Shown here in pieces: positions 16,441 to 25,644 of a stretch of 64,000 nt of DNA. Numbering within the stretch: position 1 is the first letter of the stretch; every line of letters starts with the position of its first letter. Where the stretch lies: NCBI GenBank assembly GCA_033239525.1, contig BSYO01000022.1, positions 9,319,947-9,383,946 of the forward strand. Direction: 5' to 3'. This DNA is from Nepenthes gracilis. Lineage: Eukaryota > Streptophyta > Magnoliopsida > Caryophyllales > Nepenthaceae. The position numbers and the translations under genes are program-made. The notes beneath the pieces are model-generated. The model saw only the letters and a list, made by a program, of their open reading frames with translations. It ran no database searches and was not told the DNA's origin.

Positions 16441-18061
16441 AAAGCCTCCCGGCTCATCCCTTCTTCGAAGCCGAGGTAACAAAAATTGGTCCACAATTTT
16501 ATTAAGTCCAATAGTAATCTCTTTCATCTTTTTTCTCCCATCTGAAGAATATCCCATTTGGATATGATTTTACATGAAATTGTCAGTTAACTTCCCCAAC
16601 TATGTACACAAATTATCCGCGGTGTTTTGAATTTCAAGTGTCAAAATAATTTCATTATAACATTTTGTGTTTCAAGTCCACCTAACCATTCCATAATGCT
16701 CAGGAATAGCAATCATGCAATAGAGATTGAAAACTATGAAAGAATACACAATATTCTGATAGTTTGACATTTTCTGCAAGTACAGTCCGCTATTTTGGTT
16801 GATGCATCAAAAATAACTTTAATCTCATTTATCAGTTGCATGAAATAAATTATGACATGAAGGTGATCTTCACTCAAAATAATACGCTAACCCTGTACCT
16901 CAAGTAACTATTTCTGAACTACCTTAAACACGATTAGAGTATAACCTCTTGAAACTTAAATCATAAAGGGATAATAACTCATAATAATATCAGAAACTTT
17001 TTGCCTACATGAAAAATTAGCTATCAATTCTTTATATTTTTTCTTATCAAACACCCTACCGAAATTATAGAAAAAGTCTCATATTTAAATCATATTTTAG
17101 ATGCGACTTTAAGCCACTTTTTAGGCTTTCTAATAGTTCAGTGTTCTATATGTACAAAATAAAGATATTTCTCATGCAGTACGAAGCCTACTTGTAATGC
17201 ATACTATACATACCTTCTAGCCATAAGCAGGCATACAAGCATTCTTCATTAGAAATCATTGTTACCCATACAGCTTCCAAGTCTATATCATCATCAAATC
17301 TATGCATGCATCTAATAAGTTCATGAAGCAATTCACAACGAAAATTCAAGTGCTTGGTAGCATTTTATAAAATACACCACGTATACAAGTCTTGAAAACT
17401 ACAGGACATTAGCAAATAATTTGCTTTAACCATTTTGGTAACTTGATTAGTAAAAATAGTCATAGATCTTTGTCCACCATATCATCTCAAAAATTTCTCA
17501 AACAATCATTCAAAATATTTTGCTATCTCATCATGTAACAATGAAACTCCAAATACGAGCATCAGTCTATCATGGCTAAATCTAATGAAAGTACCGAAAA
17601 CTTCAAACATTTGTTTATTCCATATGTTGCGTCGAACGTAACATCTCCAAAGGTCACATGATCAGGAATCATTTCTACATCAGCTCAGAAGATGTTAGTT
17701 ATCAACTCATTTGTATCAAGCTATATAGTATTTAAAAATTGTCCCTTTTTTTTTAATTTTTAGTTATGAAAGCATCTTAATATGACCTCCGACTCACAAC
17801 ACTACATAGTCCGCTGTCTCTTAGCTTGAATATGGCATTTTTGATCTTCTACCATATATTCAATGCTTCTCCTACCACTAGCCTTTATAACCATTAGTTT
17901 ATGTGTATCACAAGGTCTCAAACCAGCATCTTGGACTATCTCAATAACATAACCTTGTACATTTGAAACCTCTCTTTGAGATCTTAATATATGTATTGTT
18001 TCAAGAGGCTCCAGTTTATGATTATACTTCCCCATAAAATTTTTAATAGCAATAGCCATAC
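16440..18061 (-). pseudogene. FAR1/MULE-type transposase pseudogene, main part
   Basis: FAR1/FHY3-type proteins descend from Mutator-like transposases and have a WRKY-GCM1 zinc-finger DNA-binding domain, a MULE transposase core and a SWIM finger. At 18059-17802 the minus strand reads KYNHKLEPLETIHILRSQRE and ends RRSIEYMVEDQKCH and QAKRQRTM, matching the end of the FAR1 domain and the linker. At about 17690-17630 it reads FGDVTFDATYGINK, the family motif with the first catalytic Asp. About 17580-17420 gives VFGVSLLHDEIAKYFE and MTIFTNQVTKMVKANYL, covering the second Asp region, where the usual TDQ has become TNQ. Stops and frameshifts are frequent below 17800. The 5' end was separated from this part by insertion of element C and continues at 22056. 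Below about 17150 homology is too weak to follow. Confidence 0.72.
18057..18061. repeat. Target-site duplication of element C (left copy)
   Basis: CATAC directly precedes the left LTR and is repeated after the right LTR at 22056-22060. Removing the element and one copy joins the FAR1 frame across the gap. Confidence 0.9.
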
Positions 18062-18608
18062 TATTACGTACTCATCCATACACCTTTCAAAGCTGGATGA
18101 CAATCTTCGCACAAGTAATTGAACTTAATATGATGGATTTTATTTTCTATTTTTATTTCCTTTGGCTGTTTCCCCCGTTTCCCCTCATGTTTGTTTTCTA
18201 TTTTGGGTTTTCGGTTAGGTTCTAACCACAATTGATTAGACTCTCACTATAAATATAACAGCCCACTTGGTTACAAGGAAGAAGGATATTTTTTGCCACT
18301 GTCTACTCACACACTCTCTCTCTGTCTCTTCTCTCGGCGCCCTTCCCCTTCCTTCTTGATCTCTCCCTCAAATGGCTGTCTCTCTCTCTGTTTCCTTTCC
18401 TCTCTCTCTTCTGCCTTTCCTTGATTCCTCTCTCTTTGCACATCAGCTCTCTACATCTCAGCCCCTTAGTACCATTACTCCGAGGTCTACTATAGCTCCT
18501 CGGTCGTTCCCCTTTTTTTTCTCTGATTTCTCTCTGCTGGACTCCCCTTGCCGCAGCAAACATCCCTTGCGCCTGCGATTACCCGACAACACCATGGAGC
18601 ATGCATCA
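18062..18608 (+). repeat. Element C 5' LTR
   Basis: 547 bp, matching 21493-22055 throughout, for example TTTCCCCCGTTTCCCCTCAT and TTTTGGGTTTTCGGTTAGGT. A CT-rich leader follows the TATA sequence. The ATG used by the internal frame (18594) lies inside the last 15 bp of this LTR; in the other LTR the same site is CCATGTTGCAC, so that frame is not kept there. Confidence 0.88.
18248..18255 (+). promoter_or_regulatory. TATA box of the element C 5' LTR
   Basis: TATAAATA lies about 50 bp upstream of a CT-rich tract and is kept as TATAAATG at 21679-21686 in the other LTR. This is the expected place for the LTR core promoter and fixes the plus-strand orientation. Confidence 0.6.
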
Positions 18609-19382
18609 TTAGGTGCTCTCATTGAGACGAAAGCGAAGGAGATCGAAGAACGTGCACTTGACGCACTCGAAGAAGCCGTCGCTGAGCTTGCCAACGCAAT
18701 AAAGGACCTCCGACGGGCTACCGACAAATTTGGAGCCACCATGTCCACCGCGGTTTCAACAACAGCACATATCCGATCGTCCTGCACCGAAATCAGCTCG
18801 TCCATCACCGAGTTCAGCCAATCGCTCCACCGAATCGAGCACAACACTCAACGGTCAGTGACCTCACATTCTGTGGCTTCTTCTACTAATGCTTCACATC
18901 TTCACTTTTTCCAATCTGTAATTCCTTCTCTCATTGGGTCAGCACAACCACATGTAACTCAAATCACTGTTCCTATTTCCCCTACAAAACAAATTCGGCA
19001 CTCCTGTACCAATCGCATCGACCGCTTCACCTTGCCGACAGCAAATTCCTCTTTATTTTCCACTTCACCATCGTTCGTGGCTTCCACCTCTGAAACCTTA
19101 CCCCAACATGCTCTGACCAAACCATTACCATCGCAAACTCCTTTTTTCCCCATTTTACCTCAACAATCCCCATTTACTCAGATATCCACTAATTCCTCCT
19201 TAGCTCTGCTCAGTAAACTCTCTCTTCCAAGCCTACTATTCCAGATCCCATGCTTGATAACGGAGACAGATGACTCTGTCCAGATAATGGCACAACTTGC
19301 CTCTATTACGTCTCCATCTACACTTCACCACATTTTGGCTTCCCAACCAGAACTCCATTCCTCTTCTACGGGACAAAATTGA
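18594..19382 (+). CDS. Gag-like start ORF of element C (unrecognised)
   Basis: The frame is open from 18372, but the first plausible element ATG is at 18594, at the LTR edge, giving 262 residues. Residues 1 to about 50 are an acidic/basic helix likely to form a coiled coil (KAKEIEERALDALEEAVAEL). The rest is rich in Ser, Thr and Pro, with no zinc knuckle, membrane segment or catalytic motif. Plant Ty3/gypsy gags often begin with such a helix, so by position it may be a truncated gag. I do not recognise the protein and would not exclude a frame that is open by chance. The stop at 19380 is followed by sequence with stops in all three frames for about 300 bp. Confidence 0.4.
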   Translation: MEHASLGALIETKAKEIEERALDALEEAVAELANAIKDLRRATDKFGATMSTAVSTTAHIRSSCTEISSSITEFSQSLHRIEHNTQRSVTSHSVASSTNASHLHFFQSVIPSLIGSAQPHVTQITVPISPTKQIRHSCTNRIDRFTLPTANSSLFSTSPSFVASTSETLPQHALTKPLPSQTPFFPILPQQSPFTQISTNSSLALLSKLSLPSLLFQIPCLITETDDSVQIMAQLASITSPSTLHHILASQPELHSSSTGQN

Positions 19383-19689
19383 TTAGCGTGTTTCCATCAC
19401 TTCTTCATCAATGAAGGACCAACCTAGTTGCAAAATGCTTTGTCTAGAAGGAAGAGGAAGTGTCCTGGCTGAATCGACAAATGGTGCAGCTAACCTCCAA
19501 CCATCCTTCGTTGCTATGTGGCAGTTAGCCTTCGTTGCTGAGCATTATTTGTTGCGTTGTTGAAGCTGCCAATATGTTACAGGTGTTTGCATGTTTGATA
19601 CGGATGTTTATGAAGTAATGCAATTGTCACCAATTAAAAGCTAATGCTCTCCATCTTCGGTGGCTTTGAGTAGAAGACACGGTGAAAAT

Positions 19690-20874
19690 GAAAAATTTCC
19701 TTTCAGTTAGCCATTCGGGAATGCCAACTGCCTTTATACTGATGAGAAACTTCAAGAGTCAAAGGAAATTGATGATTTCCAAGGTGCGCTTCCTCCTAAC
19801 AAAGAACTGTTGCTAAAGTCTGTTAACCCACCGGCTTCGAGGCTTGCAAAGCACCTATGCGATCTGTATGGTGCCTGTGACTTTCATTATGGGCATGTCC
19901 AGAGTATGATATCAAGTGCCTTGAAGCATTATACCGAGCCCAGAGGATGCCAGTTAGGCAGGGCAGCTTCAGGGCAGATCCACATTAGTTTTCCTCATGC
20001 ACACCAGTATGGCTTCCAAGGTATTTCTGGTGATGGACAAGTATCCAATTCTCATACATTCTCACGTGATCTAGCAGCGGAAATACAGGATGTTTGGCCT
20101 ATTCCAAGAAAGGTTGATGTTATGAAATCAAAGATTGAGAATGGGCCGAATGTTGTCCAATTAGTTTCATCTGCCAATTCTTCTTGTGACCTTTCCTTTG
20201 GCTTTGAGATGACCATAAAAATCCCAAGTGTTAGGAAGGGGAAGGCTGAATCCTAGAGTCTGAAAATCTTACCTGATGATTTGGACATCTCCGGGCATCA
20301 ATTTCAAGAGTCAAGAGAGTTACCCGATGATAAGGAAGCTAAGAAGCGAATGTTCAAAAAGTGAAAGAGGACTCACAGTTCTGAAGGGGTTGGGTTGGTT
20401 AGAGAAGACAGTGAGTGGGGTGAAATGCACTCTCTTCCGGATCGTGATATAGGGCCATCCTATCTGAAAGTAGTAACTTCCCGAAATGGGCAATTTGGAA
20501 GAGTTATGGGGACCAAGGGGTTGTCAGGATCAGCTGGTCTTTTCACTATCGAAAGCAGCGATAGTTGGAAGGATGATTGCGTTGGAACTATGTCCAGCTC
20601 TCGATCCCTTCCTGCTTCTACTTATCTGGAACGCACTAAAATCATCTTGGGGTATGGAGCTCTGGGTGCTAGTGTTGGCACCGATCTGTCTTCTGTTGCA
20701 CTAGGGAATGGCAAGGATAGGACAGGCATGAAATGGGACATAGATCAACGGAGGAGCAAGTATATGGTCATGAGGAAGCTACATGCCAATGCAAAGTCAA
20801 TTCTTGATCAAAGTGAGTTCAGTTGGAATGACATGACGGTTCTATCACTGCCAAAGATAATATGTAGAATTTAG
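19690..20874 (+). pseudogene. Upstream part of the host-like sequence in element C
   Basis: Two long frames (19810-20256 and 20395-20874) in the same phase, joined by short stops at 20254 and 20362, read as hydrophilic protein with no retroelement motif. Examples are PPASRLAKHLCDLYGACDFH, EIQDVWPIPRKVDVMKSKIE and DQRRSKYMVMRKLHANAKS. Shortly after 20850 the likely frame shifts by one and leads into the YTH segment. I do not know this protein. Since it runs into the YTH domain with little interruption, I infer it is the N-terminal region of the same captured transcript. Absence of obvious introns would fit an mRNA origin but cannot be proved here. Confidence 0.5.
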
Positions 20875-21050
20875 AGTATATATTCACTGCAGTAACTCAA
20901 AAGCAAGATATGTGGAATTTGGATGATCCAGAGAGCTCCAGCTATAGAGCAACCAAAGATATTGACCCTTCTACAGCTGAAGAGCCACGATTTGGTGAAA
21001 GTTTGATAGAGAGTTCATGTGCTGTTCAAAAGATGAAAAAAATCAGTACA

Positions 21051-21299
21051 AGAAACTTCATTATTAAGAGCTTGAATCATCATAATATACAACTATCAAT
21101 TGAAAAGGGTAATTGGGCTACTCAAGTCATGAACAAACCAATCCTGGAAGAAGCCTTTGATAATTCTGATAGAGTAATTCTCGTATTTAGTGCCAACATG
21201 ACTGGTTTCTTCCAAAGCTATGCCCAAATGATGTCTTCTGTTGGCTGTAGATGGGGCAATGTTTGGAGTCAAGGAACTGGTGGAAATTCTGAATTTGGG
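21051..21299 (+). pseudogene. Truncated YTH domain (plant DC-type) inside element C
   Basis: YTH domains bind N6-methyladenosine in RNA. The frame beginning at 20910 reads NFIIKSLNHHNIQLSIEKG, WATQVMNKPILEEAF, VILVFSANMTGFFQ and AQMMSSVG, matching the first half of the YTH domain in its DC-type plant form (At4g11970-like rather than ECT/DF-type). The two tryptophans that line the m6A pocket in this family appear kept (codons at 21114 and about 21264). The domain stops after QGTGGN at about 21290: the second half, with the conserved VKW and ISRDGQE-type motifs, is missing. The following residues instead lead to a chromodomain-like tail. A working m6A reader is therefore unlikely. The upstream part of the same source gene is probably 19690-20874. 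Confidence 0.75.
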
Positions 21300-21492
21300 G
21301 TGGTGTTGGCATGGGTGCTGGTGCGGAATTGTGATGGTACCAGCACACTGTTTAGCACCTCATTGTTTGGGCTTGAATATGTCACTATGGGTTGGACTGG
21401 TTGGGCTCGAGAGGCCACTTTGGAAGCCGTTGCTAAATCTCATCCGTCCCTTCTCTTGATCAACCTTGAGGACAAGGTTATGGGAACGACAA
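21300..21492 (+). pseudogene. Chromodomain-like pol end of element C
   Basis: After the YTH segment the frame reads WTGWAREATLEAVA and LLLINLEDKVMG, resembling the W..P..EATWE and NLEDKV ending of chromovirus pol proteins. It lies directly before the 3' LTR, where that ending belongs. The purine-rich stretch at 21466-21492 (GAGGACAAGGTTATGGGAACG) may include the polypurine tract. This is the main clue to the class of the parent element; it is short and should be tested by profile search. Confidence 0.5.
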
Positions 21493-21731
21493 TATTACGT
21501 ACTCGTCCATACACCCTCCAAAGCTGGACGACAATCTTCGGCACAGTAATTGAACCTAATGTGACGGATTTCATTTTCTGTTTTTATTTCCTTTGGCTGT
21601 TTCCCCCGTTTCCCCTCATGCTTATTTTCTATTTTGGGTTTTCGGTTAGGTTCTAACAATAATTGGTTAGACTCTCACTATAAATGTAACAACCCATTTG
21701 GCTATAAGGAAGAAGGATATTTTTTGCCACT

Positions 21732-21777
<46 letters not shown>

Positions 21778-22055
21778 CTCTCGGCGCCCTTCCCCTTCCT
21801 TCTCGATCTCTCCCTTAGACGGATGTCTCTCTCTCTGTTTCCCTTCCCCTCTCTCTTCTGCCTTTCCATGATTCCTCTCTCTCTGCACCTCGGCTCTCTG
21901 CATCTCGGCCCCTTAGCACCATTACTTCGAGGTCTACTATAGCACCTTGGTCGTTCCCCTTCTTTCTCTCTAATTTCCCTCCGCTGGACTCCCCTAGCCG
22001 CAGTAAACGTCCCTTGCGCCTGCGATTACCCGACAACGCCATGTTGCACACATCA
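21493..22055 (+). repeat. Element C 3' LTR
   Basis: 563 bp, paired with 18062-18608. It contains a pure CT microsatellite at about 21735-21772, expanded relative to the other LTR, which accounts for most of the length difference. Confidence 0.88.
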
Positions 22056-22300
22056 CATACTCTCCCTTATTAATACATATTCTATCTTAGCAAGACAATT
22101 ACATCTAGTTTCTCACTGTAGTTATTTTTTGTCCCCTCTTTTACCTTGTTGGCGTTTGCCTTCTCTAGAAACGAAAATATTTGGAATATTTCCACATCGC
22201 CTTTTTTAGATTTTCTTATGAACTTTTTTCTTACGTTCGTTTTCTAATGCATCCAATTATTCATTGGATATAAATGAGCAATTAATTTTCCTTTATTCAT
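22056..22300 (-). pseudogene. FAR1/MULE-type pseudogene, 5' part beyond element C
   Basis: Reading the minus strand through 22056-22060 and on to 18056 (element C removed) keeps one frame: CLAKIEYVLIRES then MAIAIKNFMGKYNHKL. Together they form the C-terminal half of a FAR1 DNA-binding domain, with the NHKL zinc-ligand end. Farther 5', about 22215-22150 reads RKSKKGDVEIFQ in another frame, resembling the basic start of the same domain. This part carries at least one frameshift. It confirms that 18062-22055 is an insertion. Confidence 0.62.
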
Positions 22301-24439: not shown

Positions 24440-25644
24440 ATGACTTCTCTCCGCCCAGATCCGACTAAAAAATACACCCAGAGCCCTACACGAACTACTC
24501 CGCTGAAGGAAGCGACAGCGTCGACCATTTCGATCGGCTGCCGGACTCTTTGCTTCTGCTCATTTTCAACAAGATAGGAGACGTAAAAGCCCTAGGTCGA
24601 TGCTGTGTTGTTTCCAGACGGTTTATTGCTTTGGTCCCGCAGGTCGAAAACGTCATCGTACGGGTCGATTGTGTGATTTCCGATGATGAATCTTCCTCGG
24701 CATCTTCCTCCGCCGATAAGTCCCACTCTCCCTTCGTTAATCTTTTACGCGTCGTTTTTGGCAACATCTTCAAGCCTCTTCAGGCTTTGGGCCTGTTTCT
24801 CAGCTCGAAAAGATCGGGGTGTGGGCCTGGAATCGTCCCATCTTCATCGGCTTTGTCTGTGAGAAATGGCGTGGACGATGAAGAAGCGGAGCAGGGAGAT
24901 GTTACCCACCATTCCCCAACTCAGGTGCTGAGGAATTTTAATGAAATTCGCTTATTGAAGATCGAGCTTCCTAGTGGTGAATTAGGGATAGATGATGGGG
25001 TTTTGCTGAAATGGAGGGCTGATTTTGGGTCTACTCTTGACAATTGTGTGATTCTTGGCGCTTCATCAGTTGTTTATTCAGAAAAACCGACCTCAATTCA
25101 CGAAAATAGTGATGTAAATTCCATTATTGGTGATGCTAATGCCGTTGCAGATGATAACGGGAGCATACCCGAGTCCTTTTACACCAATGGGGGTCTGAAA
25201 TTGAGAGTAGTTTGGACTATTAGCTCCTTGATCGCTGCGTCTGCGAGGCATTACTTGCTGCAGCCGATTATAGCTGAGCACGAGACGTTGGATTCCCTTG
25301 TTTTGACTGATGCAGATGGACAGGGAGTGCTGTGTATGAATAGGGATCAATTGGAGGAGCTGAGGGTAAAGCCCTTGTCAGCTTCGTCGGCTTCAAAGAG
25401 AACCCTGGTGCCTGCTTTGAATATGAGGCTTTGGTATGCGCCTCACTTGGAGTTGCCTGACGGTGTCCTTCTGAAGGGGGCAACCTTGGTGGCAATTCGA
25501 CCTATTGAACAGTCTGGAATGGCAGCTAAGAAGGATATTTCGGATTTATCCTGGGTATCATCAGCATTTGAGGGGCCATATGGCACTGCAACAAAGATGC
25601 TGTTGAAGAGACGGACTTATTGCCTTGAGATGAACTCATTTTAG
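24440..25644 (+). CDS. AUF1: AUF1-like F-box protein (apparent frameshift near the 5' end)
   Basis: F-box proteins are the substrate-binding part of SCF ubiquitin ligases. AUF1 and its sister are auxin-induced members that affect root growth and hormone response. From about 24523 the frame reads DHFDRLPDSLLLLIFNKIGD and ALGRCCVVSRRF, a clear F-box. It continues with THHSPTQVLRNF, IELPSGELGIDDGVLLKWRA, VWTISSLIAASARHYLLQPI, MNRDQLEELRVKPLSASSAS, NMRLWYAPHLELPDG and the terminal KMLLKRRTYCLEMNSF. These are the conserved blocks of the intronless AUF1 family at about normal length. The frame has no ATG of its own: a TAA at 24466 precedes it. The ATG at 24440 is one base out of phase, and an AAAAAA run at 24467-24472 lies between them. 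An A-run length error would reconcile the two; otherwise the allele is broken. Element D lies 540 bp downstream. Confidence 0.85.

What the first reader, a model, noticed from the sequence alone, without database searches (positions are those of the whole stretch)
18062..22055. Retroelement that carries a truncated YTH-domain sequence in place of its pol core
Seen: LTR pair, TATA box, 5-bp target duplication, a gag-like start, a DC-type YTH first half with both pocket tryptophans, then a chromodomain-like pol end against the 3' LTR. Known: retrotransposons can capture host transcripts, and YTH proteins read m6A on RNA. Inferred: a chromovirus template switched into a host YTH mRNA and the chimera was later inserted here. 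Captured m6A-reader sequence in a plant retroelement would be unusual, and a family of such chimeras could be mobile.
Basis: partly seen in the sequence, partly recalled or inferred. Interest (0 to 1): 0.75.

Follow-up and report, generated by a model that had tools for sequence, protein, structure and literature searches.

The report
Retroelements carrying shuffled host gene pieces
In a pitcher-plant genome, a family of virus-like jumping elements seems to have lost its own enzymes and instead carries stitched-together pieces of ordinary plant genes, including half of an RNA-mark-reading (m6A reader) domain copied from a spliced messenger RNA; this is a rarely seen, multi-gene and multi-copy form of gene capture.

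Summary
Window 18062-22055 is an LTR retroelement with two 88-90% identical LTRs, a TATA box, a perfect 5-bp target duplication and a truncated DC-type YTH sequence. The genome is Nepenthes gracilis. The capture reading is largely right, and the element is one of many. The intact YTH gene (contig 9) is about 95% identical and has an 81-bp GT-AG intron that the element lacks exactly, so a spliced transcript was captured. Of 29 YTH matches in the genome, 11 are chimeras crossing the same 3' junction; 10 of these 11 lie between LTRs. Related LTR elements carry other host domains (CobW, H+-pyrophosphatase, glutamate-receptor-type ligand domain, ubiquitin hydrolase, Agenet, APD), and 5' and 3' parts are exchanged between families. 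The shared shell is LTR, a gag-like coil, a short pol-like end and LTR; no retroelement enzyme domain was found in 28 scanned pieces. Not shown: the chromovirus label, the trans-acting partner, expression, and any m6A-reading function (part of the YTH fold is missing in all 11, although 7 of 11 keep the piece open). Closest known: maize Bs1.

The parts
18057..18061 (.). Target-site duplication, left copy (CATAC)
18062..18608 (+). 5' LTR (starts TATT, where most relatives read TGTT; ends CATCA); TATAAAT at 18248
18594..18860 (+). gag-like coiled-coil-like start; its conserved ATG lies inside the LTR end (the frame is open from 18372); 150 of 150 scored places in the genome match (1236 first-look candidates, the rest not scored)
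   Evidence: frame 18372-19382; no Pfam family above cut-off
19720..20130 (+). DUF3741-protein (TRM/LONGIFOLIA-type, name recalled) host-gene piece, part 1; DUF3741 itself was above Pfam cut-off in sibling copy L040
   Evidence: C22:9339666-9340076; L040
20494..20697 (+). Second stretch similar to the same DUF3741-protein piece (P0025 residues 188-255)
   Evidence: C22:9340440-9340643
20719..20838 (+). Myb/SANT-like piece (PF12776; E=0.02 here, below cut-off; just above cut-off in siblings L040 and L042)
20929..21287 (+). Captured YTH piece, collinear with the parent gene on contig 9 (95.3% and 93.7% identity in its two exons); splice junction at 21161/21162; YTH profile 2-96 of 135
21289..21492 (+). 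pol-like 3' end (INLEDKV at 21459-21479) running to the 3' LTR
   Evidence: sequence; no Pfam family in end pieces of relatives
21493..22055 (+). 3' LTR; TATAAAT at 21679
22056..22060 (.). Target-site duplication, right copy (CATAC)

Best explanation
The locus is a decayed, non-autonomous LTR retroelement in Nepenthes gracilis. Its gag-pol interior has been replaced by pieces of at least three host genes (DUF3741-protein, Myb/SANT-like, DC-type YTH), the YTH piece certainly from a spliced transcript. Shown: LTRs, target duplications, precise intron loss, a shared junction in many copies, and mosaic exchange between related families. Inferred: element RNA was packaged with host mRNA in particles supplied by an autonomous relative; reverse transcriptase switched templates into and out of host mRNA and between element RNAs; and the chimeras were amplified in trans. 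The cargo is most likely passenger sequence, not a working m6A reader, because the later part of the YTH fold is missing in every copy and the B lineage has lost its start as well.
For: Intron: the parent exons on C9 are separated by GTAAG...TTGCAG (81 bp) and the element joins them to the base. Family: I assign 11 of 29 YTH matches to chimeras; all 11 end at or before profile position 96, against 120 in the parent's contig 9 match, and all 11 run across the same junction into the same pol-like end; 10 of the 11 lie in LTR pairs, L042 not. Insertion: best-fit 5-bp target duplications are exact in 10 of 14 delimited copies, 4 of 5 bases in three, 3 of 5 in one (the start of L056 was fitted). 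Other host domains above the Pfam cut-off in relatives: cobW, CobW_C, H_PPase, ANF_receptor, UCH, Agenet, APD1-4_M, ALG3, ParA/NUBPL, Myb_DNA-bind_3, DUF3741. cobW is unbroken by introns in the elements, while host genes are split. Sense: a scored coil lies 0-4.5 kb upstream on the same strand for 10 of 29 YTH, 23 of 101 P0025 and 3 of 10 cobW matches, and on the opposite strand for 0; stop-free frames of 120 aa or more are 57 on the LTR-sense strand and 7 on the other in 17 related interiors. Mosaicism: L044 and L047 carry about 890 nt of the L052/L053 type joined to B-type sequence; L042 is B-like 5' and A-like 3'.
Against: The parent's exon upstream of 20929 was not found within 8.4 kb. Direct parents of the DUF3741 and Myb pieces were not found; the best-scoring DUF3741-protein relative is 61% identical over 68% of the piece. 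11 of the 28 ORFs or pieces scanned matched no Pfam family at all, so part of each interior is unexplained. The cargo is not clearly neutral: pN/pS is 0.47 for two non-overlapping A-copy pairs (Fisher p=0.03), though only 1 of 6 pairs among these four copies is below 0.05 alone; pooled A 0.65 (five copies), pooled B 0.96, parent against copies 0.52 to 1.82. No transcript data were seen.
Confidence: 0.85

Rival explanations
1. Nested retroposition: LINE-type machinery made processed copies of host mRNAs that landed inside LTR elements, which then carried them along.
For: Intron loss is equally expected from processed pseudogenes.
Against: The YTH piece ends inside a coding exon and is followed by element-like sequence with no poly(A) run. 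Cargo and coil are on the same strand in every co-located case and never opposite. Several host pieces lie end to end in one element. I ran no systematic search for inner target duplications.
Confidence: 0.08
2. Read-through transduction: elements next to or inside genes produced joint, spliced transcripts that were then reverse transcribed, as proposed for Bs1.
For: Spliced read-through RNA would also lack introns. Sense orientation fits. A review describes the three Bs1 captures as transductions (PMC13317346, passages).
Against: Each of the three pieces would need its own insertion next to a different gene, followed by internal deletion. The cargo is internal, between the coil and the pol-like end, not outside an LTR. 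No element remnant was looked for near the parents beyond the contig 9 gene, where blastn of the element against about 13.5 kb gave no element match other than the captured exons (only window 19600-21492 was the query).
Confidence: 0.12
3. The cargo is selected: the element keeps a YTH-derived protein because it helps its RNA, for example by binding methylated element RNA.
For: The YTH piece has no indel and no stop in 7 of 11 copies. pN/pS is below 1 among A copies (0.47, p=0.03, two pairs of four copies). In the C26 copy the DUF3741, Myb and YTH pieces are in one frame interrupted by a single stop, and its YTH end is annotated as hypothetical protein Nepgr_025105.
Against: All 11 copies lack the later part of the YTH domain. 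The five A-type copies share I to N next to the first WATQ tryptophan and R to W further on. The B lineage lacks the start of the domain, and its pooled pN/pS is 0.96. In the window copy itself the upstream pieces are cut by stops and lie in another frame than YTH.
Confidence: 0.06

Closest known systems
Bs1 of maize
   Same: Low-copy LTR element with segments of three host genes (review PMC13317346, passages; low copy, PMC2774510, passages). That it lacks pol and that its pieces are spliced is recalled.
   Different: Bs1 is one element with one gene set. Here related families carry different sets, parts are exchanged between families, and 11 copies share the YTH junction.
LTR elements with captured genes in maize, rice and sorghum
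   Same: Gene pieces inside LTR elements: 425 elements from at least 189 captures in maize (PMC2774510, passages); 672 captured genes in rice and 1343 in sorghum (PMC3726574, passages).
   Different: The maize survey found no single LTR element with pieces of more than one standard nuclear gene under its conditions. Here, of 9 loci with a host domain above the Pfam cut-off, 5 (L040, L042, L052, L056, L057) hold domains of two or more genes.
LARD/TRIM non-autonomous LTR elements
   Same: LTRs and target duplications, no encoded enzymes found.
   Different: The interior holds host coding sequence with long sense frames, not non-coding DNA (definition recalled).
Pack-MULEs and Helitrons
   Same: Carry host gene pieces (named); several per element and shuffling are recalled.
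   Different: DNA transposons that copy genomic DNA, introns included (recalled); here the tested pieces lack introns and the carrier is an LTR element.
Plant DC-type YTH protein (parent; relatives in Hevea, Davidia, Populus)
   Same: About 95% identical to the contig 9 gene over the captured exons.
   Different: The element stops after profile position 96 and lacks the rest of the fold.

Membership tests
LTR retroelement | Paired direct LTRs with TG...CA ends | tested here: met
   Pair 18062-18608/21493-22055; TGTT...CA in 12 of 14 delimited copies, TGTG in one, TATT in the window copy
LTR retroelement | Short target-site duplication | tested here: met
   CATAC; 10 of 14 copies exact at best fit
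LTR retroelement | gag-pol with reverse transcriptase and integrase | tested here: not met
   No retroelement domain in 28 ORFs or pieces scanned with Pfam (stop-free sense pieces only): non-autonomous
Chromovirus (Ty3/gypsy with chromodomain) | Chromodomain at the pol end | tested here: not met
   0 of 4 end pieces of relatives matched any Pfam family at E<=5; only an LEDKV-type motif resemblance, 7 of 12 loci
Gene-transducing LTR element (Bs1 kind) | Host exons without introns inside the LTRs | tested here: met
   81-bp intron precisely absent; cobW continuous across a paralog's intron position. Not tested for the other pieces
[quoted passage not shown]
   36 of 140 probe matches have a scored coil upstream on the same strand, 0 on the opposite; frame bias 57 to 7. 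The Pfam scans covered sense frames only and are no test of this
Gene-transducing LTR element (Bs1 kind) | More than one host gene per element | tested here: met
   DUF3741 + Myb + YTH in L040; ALG3 + ParA/NUBPL and Myb + YTH at L042, where no LTR pair was found; ANF_receptor + UCH in L056
YTH m6A reader | Complete YTH fold with aromatic cage | tested here: not met
   Profile 2-96 of 135 only; two tryptophans present, cage role recalled

The most novel reading that the evidence does not exclude
One clan of LTR elements in Nepenthes works as a genome-wide exon-shuffling system. Its own genes have been replaced by cDNA pieces of many host genes, and recombination between element RNAs keeps producing new combinations of two to four genes that spread as multicopy families, some of them annotated as host genes. 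The gag-like coil has 1236 first-look candidates in the genome, 150 of 150 scored matched, and with only three cargo probes 24 of those 150 coils already have host-gene pieces downstream in sense (counted).
Probability: 0.5. Interest if true: 0.85.

Novelty: new variant of a known kind. Interest (0 to 1): 0.72.

Why it matters
Gene capture by LTR elements is known mainly from single captures; Bs1 is the textbook multi-gene case. A clan with many sibling chimeras, a near-identical intron-bearing parent and exchange between families makes the capture mechanism (template switching against read-through) testable by comparing junctions. It also bears on gene counts and 'novel genes' in the polyploid N. 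gracilis genome, because at least one element ORF (Nepgr_025105) sits in the annotation as a hypothetical protein.

Tried and rejected
Accessory m6A-reader role: weak but not excluded, see rivals. Tandem gene duplication or chance LTR pair: rejected by the target duplications and copies on other contigs. Chromodomain: not found. Homologs of the coil in the protein database: none at E<=0.001 among 233 candidates; since the genome holds at least 150 copies, this shows that predicted proteins do not include them, not that other species lack them. Upstream parent exon: not found within 8.4 kb. L043 proved to hold a different YTH gene (66.7% identity over 147 nt), not a chimera. The C3 CobW gene is not the parent (no blastn match). 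L012, L017 and L019 matched over the LTR only (probable solo LTRs). Genome paper of N. gracilis: not held under the identifier tried. No paper naming a YTH capture was in the 10 of 32 listed, and no Nepenthes gene-capture paper (listings; passages read in PMC12244726). Never answered: interior DNA search, PF12552, PF03030, PF03732, P0024 and pol-end DNA searches of the genome.
Full report
WHAT IS THERE. The window lies in a 752.5-Mb genome, at contig 22, 9319947-9383946. The best protein hit to its YTH frame is Nepenthes gracilis Nepgr_025105, on a contig whose length equals that of contig 26 here, so the source is N. gracilis. At 18062-22055 two LTRs (88-90% in blocks, K2P 0.116) bound a 2.9-kb interior, with CATAC duplicated outside. 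The interior holds, in order: a coiled-coil-like frame whose conserved ATG lies in the last bases of the LTR; a DUF3741-protein piece; a Myb/SANT-like piece; the first part of a DC-type YTH domain; and a short pol-like end. In the window the Myb match is below Pfam's cut-off (E=0.02) and DUF3741 is seen by similarity only; both are just above cut-off in the sibling L040 (DUF3741 25.1 against 24; Myb 24.2 against 23.6).

PROOF OF CAPTURE. An intact YTH gene on contig 9 matches window 20929-21161 at 95.3% and 21162-21287 at 93.7%, with an 81-bp GT-AG intron between. The element joins the two exons exactly. Its 3' break lies inside the second exon: the parent continues through NPWGRSF...KISRDCQ, like the Hevea and Davidia proteins, which the element lacks. 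One gap remains: the parent exon that should encode the residues just upstream of 20929 was not found in 8.4 kb.

THE FAMILY. Of 29 YTH matches in the genome, I assign 11 to chimeras: C22 (window), C36, C26, C40, C18, C29 (two), C3, C5, C2, C12. The other 18 are the contig 9 parent, matches that come in exon-like pairs (C21, C11 twice, C19, C1, C14, C8, C7), and a CPSF30-like exon on C39 (66.7% identity); apart from C9 and C39 I judged these from the table only. Four copies (window, L039, L040, L041) are collinear over the whole element at about 90%. L042 shares 18600-18859 and 20557-21511. Six (L044-L047, L049, L050) join 20784 directly to 21081 (lineage B). All 11 continue across the YTH/pol-like junction. 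At 12 positions one or both lineages are uniform and differ from the parent: changes private to A and others private to B, with one shared, fit sister lineages of one capture. LTR pairs were found in 10 of the 11; L042 had none. K2P of the paired repeats runs from 0.042 to 0.149 in 16 loci (the L052 value, 0.042, is from a 991-nt repeat of a tandem unit, longer than the LTR). At the recalled rate of 1.3e-8 per site per year the window copy would be about 4.5 million years old.

THE CLAN. LTR relatives without YTH carry other host domains above Pfam cut-offs: L053 cobW; L052 H_PPase, CobW_C and cobW; L056 ANF_receptor and UCH; L057 Agenet and APD1-4_M. L042, a YTH chimera with the coil but no LTR pair found, has ALG3 and ParA/NUBPL besides Myb and YTH. 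Below cut-off: V-ATPase_G in L056 and ThiF in L055. The one L054 ORF scanned had no match; in all, 11 of 28 ORFs or pieces had none. None of the 28 matched a retroelement family, but only stop-free sense pieces were scanned, so decayed pol remnants could be missed. The NPG- and SAAL1-like naming of the B cargo, HCF101 for the ParA/NUBPL piece, glutamate receptor for ANF_receptor, TRM/LONGIFOLIA for the DUF3741 protein, and the alpha/beta-hydrolase-like piece in L023 are recalled, not tested. The cobW piece is continuous in the elements (profile 14-177 at C16 and C32), but host genes are split (C3, C9, C18); a contig 9 paralog (72% over 60 aa) has an intron of about 0.9 kb at a point where the element is continuous.

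SHUFFLING. All interior-to-interior blastn matches printed are on one strand. L044 and L047 join about 890 nt of the L052/L053 type to B-type sequence; L042 has a B-like 5' part and an A-like 3' part. Eleven N. gracilis predicted proteins share stretches of the L040 DUF3741-protein frame; 5 of them bear the DUF3741 domain, and others bear AAA/Clp (P0022, P0024), NLP-GAF (P0027) or Myb/RRM (P0029) domains, while P0025 has DUF3741 and Sec16. I searched only P0025 back: 101 places, with the Sec16 fusion at three loci (C4, C9, C13). Some of the 101 are probably true DUF3741-protein or Sec16 genes. The coil search scored 150 of 1236 candidates and all 150 matched. With the three probes YTH, cobW and P0025, 24 distinct coils of those 150 have a cargo match 0-4.5 kb downstream on the same strand, and none on the opposite strand (counted; chance about 0.0004 per match). 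The window and its sibling copies are among these 24.

MECHANISM. Shown: retroposition through RNA (LTRs, duplications, intron loss), spread of chimeras, exchange between families. Inferred: co-packaging of host mRNA and element RNA, template switching, and supply of enzymes in trans. I did not see the partner. The longest coil frames (1251-1295 aa) are candidates but could not be read.

FUNCTION OF THE CARGO. All YTH pieces stop by profile position 96. The piece has no indel and no stop in 7 of 11 copies; L041, L047, L049 and L050 are broken. In the window the upstream pieces are cut by stops and lie in another frame than YTH; in the C26 copy all three pieces lie in one frame with a single stop. 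pN/pS is 0.96 (B, pooled) and 0.65 (A, pooled); parent against copies ranges from 0.52 to 1.82. Among four A copies two non-overlapping pairs give 0.47 with p=0.03, on 38 differences; one of the six possible pairs is below 0.05 alone. I read this as mostly passenger sequence, with weak evidence for past constraint.

LITERATURE. Bs1 is the named multi-gene case (PMC13317346, passages). Maize: 425 elements and at least 189 captures, and no element with more than one standard nuclear gene under the conditions used (PMC2774510, passages). Rice and sorghum counts: PMC3726574 (passages). [quoted passage not shown] Listings (15 of 44 shown; 10 of 32 shown) showed no report of this clan; the library holds open-licence papers only.

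Noticed in passing
window 18594-18608 and relatives: The conserved ATG of the gag-like coil lies inside the last 15 bases of the LTR, and in several copies the frame reads straight on past the LTR end, so LTR and protein start are coupled.
   Followed up: partly
L052 (C32:3626000-3635500): Three LTR copies spaced about 3.48 kb apart, two tandem units sharing a middle LTR, 96.7% identical to each other, carrying cobW and H+-pyrophosphatase pieces.
   Followed up: partly
C4:9117015-9118862, C9:5332186-5333951, C13:1937862-1942110: Three loci with a DUF3741-protein/Sec16 fusion; the C4 one has a scored coil 1.6 kb upstream in sense. LTRs were not looked for.
   Followed up: no
C33:590863, C34:7773736, C39:8893800: Coil matches in open frames of 1295, 1289 and 1251 aa, possible autonomous partners or much longer fusions.
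   Followed up: partly
L012, L017, L019 (C3:6384062, C34:8582615, C13:1904036): Matches to the LTR only, probable solo LTRs of the same family.
   Followed up: partly
L040 (C26) and P0001: The N. gracilis annotation holds an element ORF as hypothetical protein Nepgr_025105; P0020-P0029 may be further cases but, except P0025, were not located. This may inflate counts of new genes.
   Followed up: partly
window 24550-25644: A 364-aa plus-strand frame that looks like an F-box protein (recalled resemblance, not scanned), 2.5 kb downstream of the element.
   Followed up: no
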